Origin: an uncultured Clostridia bacterium
GTDB lineage: Bacteria; Bacillota; Clostridia; Oscillospirales; Acutalibacteraceae
Length of the DNA: 42,413 nucleotides
Assembly (NCBI GenBank): GCA_947652665.1
Contig: CANTDZ010000010.1
Location: 1 to 42,413 of the forward strand
Direction: 5' to 3'
The notes beneath the pieces were generated by a model. The model made no database searches and had not been told where the DNA came from. It saw only the letters and a list, made by a program, of their open reading frames with translations. This document shows positions 7,320 through 11,752 of the stretch, one piece after another. The position numbers and the translations under genes are program-made. How positions within the stretch are numbered: the stretch's first letter is position 1; the number at the start of each line of letters is the position of its first letter.

Positions 7320-7334
7320 GTGCAGCGGTGACGG

Positions 7335-7363
7335 TTGCTTTTTGTGTTATTTTCTGGTATTAT
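7335..7363 (+). promoter_or_regulatory. Promoter of the type I toxin mRNA
   Basis: TTGCTT (7335-7340), 17 bases, TATTAT (7358-7363). The start of transcription would be near 7370, giving a leader of about 120 bases before the toxin start codon. Confidence 0.65.
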
Positions 7364-7464
7364 GAAGGTGCGCAACAGCGCAGGAGCCTGCCAAACGGTA
7401 GGTGGTTGGCCTTCAACAGAACGGCCTGAACCTTCTGATTACATAGAAACCCCATAGCTTGGGG
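7364..7464 (+). promoter_or_regulatory. Structured leader of the toxin mRNA
   Basis: GAAGGT (7364-7369) can pair with ACCTTC (7430-7435), enclosing several smaller GC stems. CCCC (7451-7454) and GGGG (7461-7464) form a second hairpin just before the ribosome site AAAGGAGGGG (7475-7484). Long folded leaders that limit translation are common in type I toxin mRNAs. That this one does so is inference. Confidence 0.5.
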
Positions 7465-7488
7465 AATCCATGGAAAGGAGGGGATACT

Positions 7489-7581
7489 TTGAGTGCCTAT
7501 GAAATCCTCTCACTGGCGTTGATGATGGATGGTATCATTGTCACGCTCTTGATTGCATGGATCACCAGCACAAAAAAGTAA
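7489..7581 (+). CDS. Holin-like type I toxin peptide (30 residues)
   Basis: A 30-codon frame starts at TTG 7489, seven bases after a perfect AGGAGG, and ends with TAA. The peptide begins MSAYEILSLALMM, has one hydrophobic membrane-spanning stretch (GIIVTLLIAWI) and ends TSTKK. The start M-S-x-Y-E-x-L-S-L, a single membrane segment and a short basic tail are the hallmarks of the putative holin-like toxin family (Pfam Hol_Tox), related in design to TxpA/BsrG-type toxins that damage the membrane. A convergent antisense RNA overlaps its 3' end, as expected for a type I system. The frame is too short for most gene callers. Activity is inferred from architecture. Confidence 0.85.
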   Translation: MSAYEILSLALMMDGIIVTLLIAWITSTKK

Positions 7582-7605
7582 CCGCCCCGGCATAGGAGCG
7601 GTTGC
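7571..7605 (-). terminator. Terminator of the antisense antitoxin RNA
   Basis: GCAACCGCTCC pairs with GGGGCGGTTAC (one G-T pair), followed on the minus strand by six T. It overlaps the toxin stop codon. It would also end transcripts reading through from pepC. Confidence 0.82.
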
Positions 7606-7631
7606 TTTTCACATAATAACAACTTAACCAG

Positions 7632-7660
7632 GCCAGCCGTCTATCGGCAGGCTCTTTTTT
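7632..7660 (+). terminator. Terminator of the toxin mRNA
   Basis: GCCAGCCG (7632-7639) pairs with CGGCAGGC (7645-7652) with a single A-A mismatch, followed by TCTTTTTTT. In the antisense RNA the same bases form the 5' hairpin. Confidence 0.8.
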
Positions 7661-7669
7661 TCTGTCTTT

Positions 7670-7698
7670 ATTATAGCAGGATTTCCGGCCTTTGTCAA
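7670..7698 (-). promoter_or_regulatory. Promoter of the antisense antitoxin RNA
   Basis: Perfect TTGACA (7693-7698), 17 bases, perfect TATAAT (7670-7675) on the minus strand. It is much stronger than the toxin promoter, as expected for a type I antitoxin. It starts only six bases past the pepC stop. Confidence 0.92.
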
Positions 7699-7704
7699 CG
7701 CTCC

Positions 7705-9042
7705 TTACAGCGCCAGCGAACCCATGGGGTCCCAAGGCTCCAGGGCGATGGGCGGCTGCTCCAGTTCCTGCTTCTGGGCGTCCGTCAGGTACTTCTTGTT
7801 CACCACGATCTGGTAGGTGTACTCGCTGAACCACTCGTCGCTCATGACATAGTAGCCGTCCTCGCCGGGCTCTTTGCCCCAGCTGTTTTCCACGCGCCAG
7901 CGGGTGGGCTTGCCGTCCTCATCCAGGTTGACCCCCTGGAACACCATGGCGTGGGTCATCAGGCTGTCGCCGTAATCCAGGCGCTGGGCCTTGTCCATGC
8001 CGAAGGTGGTGCCAAAGAGCTCGTCGACCCGCACGGCCTCCAAATCCATGATGCCGCCGTCGCGGATGGAATCCTGGCCCACGTCGCAGCCGAACCACAC
8101 GGGCTTGCCGTCCTTCATCTGGGCGATGGCCGCGGCCTTTAGGTCTTCAATGGGCAGGTTCAGGTACTTGACCGGGCGGCCCTCCACGATGTTGCCCAGC
8201 ATCTTGACGGTGTAGGTCTTGTGGTAGGGCTTGTCGGCGGTGGGGGCGTTGATGAGGCTGACATAATCGTCCATGTCCCAGCCCACGTATTTCTGGAAGA
8301 AGTCCTGGCCGGTCAGGTTCTCGTCGCGGATGAACTCTTTCTTTTTGTTCTGGATTTCAAAGGTAAAGGTCTGCGGGGGCGTGCCCAGGGAGACGCACAG
8401 AATGTCATAGATGGTCTGCATCATGGCGTCTTTCTCTGCGCGCAGGGCCTCGATGGATTTGCCGGCGGCGTGGCCTTCCCGCAGGACGCAGGCGAATTCC
8501 CGCAGCTTTTTGGTCATAAAGCGGGTCATCTCCCAGGTGCTGGAGGAGGATGCGGTTTCGGGCATGACGTCCTTGGGCACTACGCCGTATTTGTTCACCA
8601 AGTTGCAGAACATATCCCACTGGCCGCCGTCGCCCAGAGGGTCGTGCAGCAGGTGGGCGATCACCCGCCCGGCGGTGGGCTCGTCCAGGGTGCACAGGAT
8701 GTTCTCCAGGAAATAGTTGGATTTCTCCAGCTTGTCATAGAAAAGCGTGTAGCTCTGGGACAGCTCGATGTTCTCCAAGTCCAGCTTCTTCATGATGTCA
8801 AAGCGCATGGTGTTCAGCGCAGCGAACATCCAGCAGCGGCCCGACTGCTTCTGGTTGGTGATCTTCCCCTGCTCCAGGCGGATGGAATACTGGTGGCGGT
8901 CCTTGGCGTAGACCTGGGGGTCGATGGCCGACTTGACCACGCCGTTTGCGGTGCAGGCGCGCATGGCGACGTTCTTGGCCTTGTCGGCGGCAAATGCCTG
9001 GCGGTACTGTCCGAGCTGTTCGAGGGTGATGTTCTTGTCCAT
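7705..9042 (-). CDS. pepC: Aminopeptidase C (bleomycin hydrolase family, C1B)
   Basis: A cytoplasmic papain-fold cysteine aminopeptidase that trims peptides from the N-terminus. The 445-residue length is normal. The catalytic triad is visible: Cys in QKQSGRCWMFAALN (about residue 70), His in SLMTHAMVFQGV and Asn in WRVENSWGKE. The family motif LSQSYTLFYDKLEKSNYF is also present. The C-terminus ends MGSLAL, consistent with the self-compartmentalising arm of these hexamers. The start has a perfect AGGAGG site. It is downstream of the methyltransferase and ends next to the antitoxin promoter, so its transcript may run into the antisense RNA and stop at that hairpin. Confidence 0.95.
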   Translation of the reverse strand: MDKNITLEQLGQYRQAFAADKAKNVAMRACTANGVVKSAIDPQVYAKDRHQYSIRLEQGKITNQKQSGRCWMFAALNTMRFDIMKKLDLENIELSQSYTLFYDKLEKSNYFLENILCTLDEPTAGRVIAHLLHDPLGDGGQWDMFCNLVNKYGVVPKDVMPETASSSSTWEMTRFMTKKLREFACVLREGHAAGKSIEALRAEKDAMMQTIYDILCVSLGTPPQTFTFEIQNKKKEFIRDENLTGQDFFQKYVGWDMDDYVSLINAPTADKPYHKTYTVKMLGNIVEGRPVKYLNLPIEDLKAAAIAQMKDGKPVWFGCDVGQDSIRDGGIMDLEAVRVDELFGTTFGMDKAQRLDYGDSLMTHAMVFQGVNLDEDGKPTRWRVENSWGKEPGEDGYYVMSDEWFSEYTYQIVVNKKYLTDAQKQELEQPPIALEPWDPMGSLAL

Positions 9043-9080
9043 GGGAATGCCTCCTGATTATAGTTAAAATTTGTATGGAA

Positions 9081-9809
9081 TTACATTTTTTGAGCCGATA
9101 CCGCCAGCATCATGGGGCGGCGCATTTCGTCCGGCATACCGGGCAGGCTCATCATGCTTTGGGGCGGCTGGGGCTCGCGCACGTGGCGCAGGGCAAAACC
9201 GGCTTCCAGCAGGCCGTCCAGATAGGTGGTGAGGGTGCGGTGGTATTTGGTGACCTCCTCGCCCAGGAAGACCGCCTGGCGCTGGCCTTCGTAAAAGTAG
9301 CGGTCTACGGGGAAGTGCTGGATTTCCCCCTCCGGGCCGTAGTGCCAGTCCTGAGGCCCTTGGGCGGTGAAGACCGGGTGCTCGACCGTAAAGACGAACG
9401 TGCCGCCCGGGGCAAGCCAGCTGTGCACCTTGCGGTAAAGGCCGGGGATATCCTCTATATAATGGAGGGCCAGGGAGCTTAGCACGATGTCAAAGGAGCC
9501 GGGCCCGAAGTCTGCTTCTTCTATAGAAAGCAGGCGGTATTCGACCGCTTCCCGCCCGTTTTTCTCCCGGGCCGCATCCAGCATCTTTTGGGAGATGTCC
9601 GTGCCCAGCACCGAGGCCGCGCCGTGGTCGGCCGCCCAGGCGCAGTGCCAGCCGTAGCCGCAGCCCAGGTCGAGCACGCGCCTGCCGGTGAAATCGGGCA
9701 GCATGGCCCGGAGGGTCTCCCACTCGCCTGCCCCGGAGAGGCCCTTTTGCGAACGGAGCATCCCGCTGTATTTTTCGAAGAAGACGGGGTCGTCGTATTT
9801 GTTTTGCAT
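9081..9809 (-). CDS. Class I SAM-dependent methyltransferase
   Basis: The 242-residue protein has the Rossmann methyltransferase signature: VLDLGCGYGWHCAWAADHG (motif I, about residues 45-63), VLGTDISQKMLDAAREK (motif II with the acidic residue that binds the ribose), DIVLSSLALHYIED (motif IV) and LAPGGTFVFTVEHPVF (post-IV). It belongs to the UbiE/Methyltransf_11 group of small-molecule methyltransferases. The substrate cannot be inferred. The start follows AAGGAAAAT. A terminator-like hairpin lies between it and the upstream 84-residue gene, so it may be expressed only by read-through. Confidence 0.9.
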   Translation of the reverse strand: MQNKYDDPVFFEKYSGMLRSQKGLSGAGEWETLRAMLPDFTGRRVLDLGCGYGWHCAWAADHGAASVLGTDISQKMLDAAREKNGREAVEYRLLSIEEADFGPGSFDIVLSSLALHYIEDIPGLYRKVHSWLAPGGTFVFTVEHPVFTAQGPQDWHYGPEGEIQHFPVDRYFYEGQRQAVFLGEEVTKYHRTLTTYLDGLLEAGFALRHVREPQPPQSMMSLPGMPDEMRRPMMLAVSAQKM

Positions 9810-11570: not shown

Positions 11571-11599
11571 TTGACAGCGGAGAAAAGTTGCGCTATAAT
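11571..11599 (+). promoter_or_regulatory. Promoter of the second antisense-type RNA
   Basis: Perfect TTGACA (11571-11576), 17 bases, perfect TATAAT (11594-11599). Same quality as the antitoxin promoter at 7670-7698. Confidence 0.9.
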
Positions 11600-11605
11600 A
11601 GAAGC

Positions 11606-11703
11606 AGGAAAAGAAAAAGAGCCTGCCGATATACGGCTGGCCAAGGTTAGCTATGTTTTTATTAACTAAAAGTAGCTGCCCGTGCCGGGGCGGCTACTTT
11701 TTT
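11606..11703 (+). ncRNA. Orphan paralogue of the type I antitoxin RNA
   Basis: The predicted RNA of about 98 bases starts a few bases after the TATAAT box and ends at a strong hairpin (GTAGC...GCTAC, 11672-11697) with six T. It carries AAAGAGCCTGCCGATA then ACGGCTGGCC (11613-11642), which differs from the antitoxin RNA of the 7.5 kb locus at one position in the shared box. Its terminator (GCCGGGGCGGCTACTTTTTTGTG) is also similar. On the opposite strand, where the toxin should be, only a C-terminal DTKK-stop-like end next to the terminator resembles the toxin; there is no membrane segment, start or ribosome site. I infer a solitary antitoxin left after loss of its toxin gene. Confidence 0.72.
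11609..11641 (-). terminator. Remnant toxin-side terminator of the second locus
   Basis: On the minus strand GCCAGCCG pairs with CGGCAGGC (one A-A mismatch), then TCTTTTTCTTTT. This is the same hairpin that ends the toxin mRNA at 7632-7660, and it now faces a missing gene. Confidence 0.6.
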
Positions 11704-11752
11704 GTGTCTTTTAGCGCTGAAAAAATTTTGCCCCAGAAACCAGTTTGCCCGA

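What the first reader, a model, noticed from the sequence alone, without database searches (positions are those of the whole stretch)
7335..7698. Complete type I toxin-antitoxin locus between accD and pepC
Seen: a 30-codon frame with perfect AGGAGG and the M-S-x-Y-E-x-L-S-L start plus one membrane helix; toxin promoter and terminator on the plus strand; a stronger consensus promoter on the minus strand driving an RNA of about 90 bases that covers the toxin stop and 3' region and ends at its own terminator. Known: the layout matches txpA/RatA-type systems with holin-like (Hol_Tox) toxins. Both genes are shorter than usual gene-calling limits and likely unannotated in this chromosome.
Basis: partly seen in the sequence, partly recalled or inferred. 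Interest (0 to 1): 0.85.

Follow-up and report, generated by a model that had tools for sequence, protein, structure and literature searches.

The report
Toxin-antitoxin family with conserved RNA leader
A tiny membrane-peptide gene and a short antisense RNA facing it look like a self-contained toxin-antitoxin pair, one copy of a family in gut Clostridia that keeps the same folded RNA leader even where the peptide is different.

Summary
At 7335-7698 lie a weak plus-strand promoter, a ~100-nt leader, AGGAGG, a 30-codon frame starting with TTG (7489-7581), two hairpins, and a 12-of-12 consensus minus-strand promoter for an RNA of ~94 nt complementary to the frame's last codons and the 3' region.

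It is one of many copies: 13 DNA matches in its own genome. A leader profile matches 16 of 29 genomes of the genus (inferred: Acutalibacter) and 89 of 397 of another family (inferred: Lachnospiraceae). Frames are under purifying selection. The antisense promoter is 12/12 in 16 of 16 complete genus copies scored. The leader has covarying, mutually exclusive helices and pairs with the mRNA's 3' end. Of 53 leaders, 52 have the antisense gene downstream. Toxin-less antisense genes occur, one in this window (11571-11705).

Best reading: a type I toxin-antitoxin family working like txpA/RatA or bsrG/SR4. The peptide is remotely related to Hol_Tox but fails Pfam's test; Lachnospiraceae-type peptides on the same RNA frame are unrelated by sequence. 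Transcription and toxicity are unproven; the switch mechanism is inferred, and one energy test did not support it.

The parts
7335..7363 (+). toxin promoter, TTGCTT-17-TATTAT, TG before the -10
   Evidence: sequence; 8 of 12 consensus
7383..7483 (+). conserved leader of the toxin mRNA: P1 (7386-7392 with 7397-7403), segment X (7404-7411), P2b (7417-7437), P3 with bulge GATTACATAGAAACCC..GGGGAATC (7437-7468)
   Evidence: profile R2 73.1 bits, E 1.4e-15 (this copy was in the training set); covariation on related copies
7476..7481 (+). Shine-Dalgarno AGGAGG
   Evidence: sequence
7489..7581 (+). 30-residue membrane peptide (putative toxin), TTG start, stop included
   Evidence: purifying selection in the family; hydropathy
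7580..7603 (-). terminator hairpin of the antisense RNA; its U-tract is read from the template of the toxin's last codons (AAAAAAG)
7631..7661 (+). 3' end of the toxin mRNA: terminator hairpin and U-tract, complementary to leader bases 7384-7412
7570..7663 (-). antisense (antitoxin) RNA, ~94 nt, complementary over its whole length to the 3' part of the toxin mRNA
   Evidence: sequence and fold; profile R3 over 7570-7698, 125.4 bits (this copy was in the training set)
7670..7698 (-). antitoxin promoter TTGACA-17-TATAAT, 12 of 12
11571..11705 (+). second copy reduced to the antitoxin gene (promoter 11571-11599 intact), no leader and only the last toxin codons left
   Evidence: R3 101.6 bits, E 3.4e-19, not in the training set; no leader match

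Best explanation
A chromosomal type I toxin-antitoxin locus, one copy of a multicopy family. Shown by sequence comparison: a weak promoter precedes an mRNA with a structured leader and a 30-residue membrane peptide; a consensus promoter just past the mRNA's terminator would drive a ~94-nt antisense RNA complementary to the last codons and the 3' untranslated region; the mRNA's 5' leader and 3' end are complementary and covary. Inferred: the peptide harms the membrane when over-made; the nascent mRNA folds into P1 (and P2a), then closes 5' to 3' when its end is made; the antitoxin, whose 5' part nearly repeats the leader's 5' arms, pairs with the 3' end in competition with the leader; the duplex is cut by RNase III and translation stays off.
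For: Purifying selection: pN/pS 0.10-0.60 in six groups, 492 of 496 (non-independent) pairs with pN<pS in the largest. Antisense promoter 12/12 in 16 of 16 complete genus copies, shuffled 6.5; 9.4 against 7.4 in 55 Lachnospiraceae-type copies. Own leader and 3' end pair better than exchanged partners, 0 of 10000 permutations in both groups. 5'-3' closure predicted in 74 of 74 full-length folds, with P1 lost and P2a nearly lost. Leader helices covary. 52 of 53 leaders have the antisense gene downstream, the exception at a contig end. Of 18 antitoxin units displayed, 6 keep only the last toxin codons and 2 more a 5'-truncated frame. Ten true Hol_Tox loci show the same own-specific 5'-3' pairing (0 of 10000), and the peptide family is remotely related to Hol_Tox.
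Against: No expression or toxicity data. No over-threshold Pfam, NCBIfam or PADLOC match for the window peptide. Shine-Dalgarno accessibility does not differ between full-length and tail-less folds (higher in 38 of 74, p=0.89), so the tail is not shown to switch translation. In Lachnospiraceae-type copies P2b is favoured even without the tail. Direct pairing of segment X with the Shine-Dalgarno region does not covary (633 and 3372 of 10000). The anti-Shine-Dalgarno helix shows no two-sided change. The permutations ignore shared ancestry. The toxin promoter is weak (8/12).
Confidence: 0.82

Rival explanations
1. A regulated but non-toxic small membrane peptide: the structured leader is a sensor (riboswitch-like) and the antisense RNA tunes expression; there is no addiction.
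For: Near-invariant bulge GAUUACAUAGAAACCC in the leader; unrelated peptides follow the same leader.
Against: Antisense promoter kept at full consensus in the genus; the only leader without an antisense gene lies at a contig end; copy number up to 14 leaders and 22 antitoxins in one genome; remote relation to Hol_Tox.
Confidence: 0.12
2. A small selfish repeat (MITE-like): the complementary ends are terminal inverted repeats and the frame is incidental.
For: Many copies, tandem arrays, variable position, complementary ends.
Against: Purifying selection on the frame; two-sided changes that keep RNA pairing; conserved promoters on both strands. Spread as a repeat and a toxin-antitoxin function do not exclude each other; target duplications were not examined.
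Confidence: 0.05

Closest known systems
Hol_Tox (Pfam PF16935) type I toxins
   Same: Short MSxYE-type membrane peptide with basic end; profile-profile 95.8 %; the 10 Hol_Tox loci examined, of 24 fetched, also have own-specific 5'-3' pairing
   Different: Below Pfam's threshold; the leader was not found in the 24 Hol_Tox loci (best E 0.54)
txpA/RatA and bsrG/SR4, bsrE/SR5 of B. subtilis
   Same: Convergent genes overlapping at the 3' ends, small membrane peptide, SR4 acts from the 3' end on the Shine-Dalgarno helix (PMC7430163, passages read)
   Different: Antitoxins there are 222, 180 and 163 nt (same source); here ~94 nt, lying wholly inside the toxin transcript; conserved P2/P3 leader added
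aapA3/IsoA3 of H. pylori
   Same: Metastable Shine-Dalgarno-hiding hairpins, then a 5'-3' long-distance interaction (PMC6733600, working-model section read)
   Different: No sequence relation sought; whether closure switches translation is not shown here
C. difficile type I systems (CD2517.1-RCd8 and others)
   Same: Convergent overlapping genes in a Clostridia genome, several copies per genome (PMC6563280, sections 4 and 5 of the text read)
   Different: Toxins there have 34-59 residues; no sequence comparison with them was made here

Membership tests
type I toxin-antitoxin system | small hydrophobic peptide with a membrane helix and charged end | tested here: met
   best 17-residue hydropathy 2.4; Lys-Lys end invariant in 13 aligned peptides; purifying selection
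type I toxin-antitoxin system | antisense RNA gene with its own promoter and terminator overlapping the toxin mRNA | tested here: met
   by sequence only; transcription not tested
type I toxin-antitoxin system | peptide is toxic and the RNA neutralises it | not testable with these tools
   needs expression experiments
Hol_Tox (PF16935) | score above Pfam's gathering cut-off (23.3 bits) | tested here: not met
   no match for the window peptide or in its genome; best family peptide 10.2 bits
Hol_Tox (PF16935) | detectable homology to true members | tested here: met
   hhalign 95.8 %, E 6.8e-9 for one comparison; 16 of 30 identities between L007 and Hol_Tox member L250
txpA/RatA family | convergent genes with 3' overlap | tested here: met
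txpA/RatA family | match to a known antitoxin RNA family in Rfam 15 | tested here: not met
   nothing at gathering score in the window; below threshold only unrelated families
txpA/RatA family | RNase III-dependent silencing | not testable with these tools
   needs an RNase III deletion strain

The most novel reading that the evidence does not exclude
One RNA chassis (leader, 3' end, antitoxin promoter) carries exchangeable toxin peptides across Clostridia. Its mRNA is a three-state switch in which the 3' end, once made, displaces P1 and P2a, and the antitoxin is a diffusible near-copy of the mRNA's own leader that takes the 3' end first. Toxin-less antitoxin genes are kept as genome-encoded protection against related incoming copies.
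Probability: 0.3. Interest if true: 0.72.

Novelty: new variant of a known kind. Interest (0 to 1): 0.52.

Why it matters
The 2019 review of type I systems in Clostridia (PMC6563280) says that knowledge is limited to experimentally validated modules of C. difficile, with in silico TxpA-like sequences in Clostridium bolteae. Here a family seen in 16 of 29 genomes of one genus and 89 of 397 of another family has no over-threshold match of its leader in Rfam 15 or of the peptides tested in Pfam and NCBIfam. It occurs in cultured gut bacteria (Roseburia faecis M72, Eubacterium ramulus, Blautia species, Anaerobutyricum hallii), so it can be tested. It separates the conserved part (RNA) from the variable part (toxin), and gives natural toxin-less antitoxin genes to test the anti-addiction idea.

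Tried and rejected
Known RNA family: no Rfam match in the window at gathering score; below threshold only unrelated families; in six Lachnospiraceae-type loci the three gathering matches (RNase P, gut-2, RAGATH-35) lie away from the leader.

'The tail frees the Shine-Dalgarno sequence': not supported by equilibrium folding. 'Segment X covaries with the Shine-Dalgarno region': not supported.

Phage or plasmid origin: no DNA match in 50,697 phage and 72,556 plasmid records; a Lachnospiraceae-type peptide has no plasmid match and one weak phage match, E 0.02. Three IMG/VR contigs do carry the leader.

Other libraries: no solved structure, no PADLOC match for 5 peptides, weak PHROGs matches of unknown function only, best E 0.005 among 10 peptides.

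Error of mine: profile R2 was built with a misregistered structure string (one search shows 33 % of cells paired). R2 and R3 were trained on copies that include the window's.

Rows dropped: of 108 pattern stretches three (L098, L126, L157; Bacteroidales or Sphingobacteriales titles) look like chance. The regex scripts dropped elements whose parts they could not place: 93 with leader core and tail, 74 complete, 71 scored for promoters. Of 24 Hol_Tox loci, 10 with a clear start were used. Of 31 loci scanned for antitoxin units, 18 units were displayed. The first peptide pattern was faulty and was replaced.

Full report
Observation. The 30-codon frame runs from TTG 7489 to TAA 7581, with seven bases between AGGAGG (7476-7481) and the start. 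An upstream TTG would lengthen the mechanical frame to 40 residues, but relatives start at the equivalent of 7489. The minus-strand promoter at 7698-7670 matches the consensus at 12 of 12 bases, and the RNA that it would make (about 7663 to 7570) ends at a strong terminator. The mRNA's own terminator is 7631-7661.

Family. A DNA search of the window's own genome gives 13 matches. Of 40 genomes searched, own included, 14 have matches; all 14 are among the 25 of the same genus and none among the 15 of other families. The genus is inferred to be Acutalibacter, because contig G009:C43 has the length (251,590) of a named Acutalibacter sp. 1XD8-36 contig that carries the element. G018 has tandem copies. 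An exact scan of genome contigs for GATTACATARARACCY-N2-31-GGGAATC gave 108 stretches. By record title most are Lachnospiraceae, Blautia, Roseburia, Eubacterium, Acetatifactor or unplaced Clostridia; three look like chance and one bears a Muribaculaceae label (L063), perhaps a binning error. The leader profile R2 matches 16 of 29 genus genomes, 8 of 391 class genomes, own included, and 89 of 397 genomes, 85 of 334 genera, of family f44. That f44 is Lachnospiraceae is inference. R2's base pairs were entered in the wrong register, so these are sequence-profile hits.

Coding. In six groups of equal-length frames pN/pS is 0.60, 0.20, 0.10, 0.24, 0.41 and 0.16; in the largest 492 of 496 pairs, not independent, have pN<pS. 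Lachnospiraceae-type peptides (MSIVDFIAVVSFGLTCFSIGYTFGKDNNKTQK and kin) do not align by profile with the window family (0.9 %) or with Hol_Tox (6.2 %), although leader, 3' end and antisense promoter are alike. L108 has the Lachnospiraceae-type leader and 3' end with an MSDFE-type peptide. I read this as one RNA chassis with exchangeable toxins. Seventy-two of 74 frames end in Gln-Lys or Lys-Lys; those A-rich codons are also the template of the antitoxin's U-tract, which may be why only the end is shared (inference).

Leader structure. On 19 genus sequences, P1+P2b+P3 gives 93.9 % paired cells and 24 cells with two-sided changes, each reached by 0 of 500 shuffles; the number of pairs with a two-sided change (7) was reached by 6 of 500; slid registers give at most 50.3 %. 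The alternative with P2a and an anti-Shine-Dalgarno helix gives 95.7 % and 21 cells, 0 of 500 each; its anti-Shine-Dalgarno helix has no two-sided change. On 24 sequences from both groups, P2b has two-sided changes in 4 of 7 pairs and 96.4 % paired cells; P2a in 1 of 5 and 98.3 %. P2a and P2b share bases and exclude each other; support is stronger for P2b.

Long-range pairing. The window mRNA folds with its 5' arm on its 3' end, z-score -6.4. The leader-tail duplex is -44.1 kcal/mol; 2000 shuffled pairs reach at best -36.4. Across copies, own leader and tail pair better than exchanged ones: -43.7 against -38.3 (13 genus copies) and -38.1 against -34.5 (53 others), 0 of 10000 permutations each. 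Relatedness inflates this, but matched changes such as CUGACC/GGUCAG (L018) and GGAUGCCACC/GGUGGCAUC (L107) are direct. Closure is predicted in 74 of 74 full-length folds. Ten of the 24 Hol_Tox loci fetched were examined and show the same own-specific pairing, -51.4 against -32.9, 0 of 10000. Closure therefore seems more widespread than this leader, which was not found in the 24 loci.

Mechanism and what speaks against it. The antitoxin's 5' part is complementary to the tail and so nearly repeats the leader's arms; leader and antitoxin should compete for the tail. Precedents are the metastable hairpins plus long-distance interaction of aapA3 (PMC6733600, outline and working-model section), and SR4, which binds the bsrG 3' end and lengthens the helix that hides its Shine-Dalgarno (PMC7430163, passages). 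In the same source RatA binding does not change the txpA Shine-Dalgarno region. The timP mRNA, which is active in full length and has exclusive conformations (PMC11228461, abstract and outline), is a further parallel. My guess that closure frees the Shine-Dalgarno was not supported: mean accessibility 0.32 in full-length and 0.30 in tail-less folds, higher in 38 of 74, p=0.89. The direction of the switch stays open.

Antitoxin. The promoter is 12/12 in 16 of 16 complete genus copies (mononucleotide-shuffled mean 6.5); the toxin promoter averages 8.9 (shuffled 6.6); in 55 Lachnospiraceae-type copies the antisense promoter averages 9.4 against 7.4. Profile R3 gives 111 antitoxin units in 21 of 29 genus genomes. 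Of 53 leader matches 52 have one downstream; the exception lies at a contig end. The reverse does not hold: 59 units lack a leader match. Some have a toxin frame with a diverged leader or another peptide (for example L023, L034, L215, L221). Among 18 units displayed, however, six keep only the last codons (L008, L019, L030 at 1571, L031, L047, L211) and two a 5'-truncated frame (L006, L217). This sorting was made by eye. In the window's genome the antitoxins of six toxin copies match one another's mRNAs over 9 to 30 perfect bases, and three toxin-less units match the six over 13 to 30. The unit in this window (11571-11705) keeps promoter and terminator and only the last codons. Toxin-less type I antitoxins are known in E. 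coli (orzP; PMC11264685, passages).

Site. None of 28 other accD loci in the genus (29 found, own included) carries the element in the stretches fetched, up to 1.5 kb on each side; pepC turned up near one, L170. In G002 similarity runs to window 7320, right up to the element, and then resumes at window 9087, so the element and pepC are both missing between accD and the next gene. G002 does carry a copy on the same contig about 2.8 kb upstream of accD. The position is variable; target duplications were not examined.

Filing. By layout this is a type I toxin-antitoxin locus of the txpA/RatA or bsrG/SR4 kind. It is not filed as Hol_Tox, because Pfam's threshold is not met; remote kinship is supported. 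Papers were sought; in the rows listed (some lists were capped) I saw no title or abstract start about a type I system in Lachnospiraceae or Acutalibacter. The review PMC6563280 does mention predicted TxpA-like sequences in Clostridium bolteae, which I recall to be a Lachnospiraceae species. The survey of candidate structured RNAs in human microbiomes (PMC8040213, passages) may hold this leader in tables that I could not read.

Noticed in passing
L049 1043-1106 (G000:C18:8042-8105); similar inserts in L030, L040, L073, L075, L119, L127, L148: A palindromic insert of roughly 55 nt (core like GCCACTGGC with CGGTCGGTTCG) sits inside the leader of copies from distant genomes, mostly in the P2 loop; it has 3 places in the window's genome.
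   Followed up: partly
G016; L036 = G018:C68:8900-13900: Very high copy number: 14 leader and 22 antitoxin matches in one genome, and head-to-tail copies in G018.
   Followed up: partly
L012, L016, L017, L033, L052: The 5' half of the leader is replaced by another sequence (ending like ..TACCGGGAAACTCC) while the GATTACATA part, frame and 3' end are kept.
   Followed up: no
L198 about 1447-1816; L215, L221: Further peptide types behind a similar RNA frame, for example MSLDQILQFVIMLTAVAALFYQIGKRK.
   Followed up: no
window 7319-7291: A minus-strand promoter-like site for accD (TTGCCT-17-TATAAT) lies directly beside the toxin promoter, so the two genes would start divergently from a very short interval.
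   Followed up: no
L047 380-760 (G000:C48): A toxin-less antitoxin copy whose terminator hairpin is duplicated in tandem.
   Followed up: no
window 7321-9086 against G002:C5 (L169): Element and pepC are both missing in G002 between accD and the methyltransferase-like gene at window 9081-9809, so the pair may have come or gone together.
   Followed up: partly
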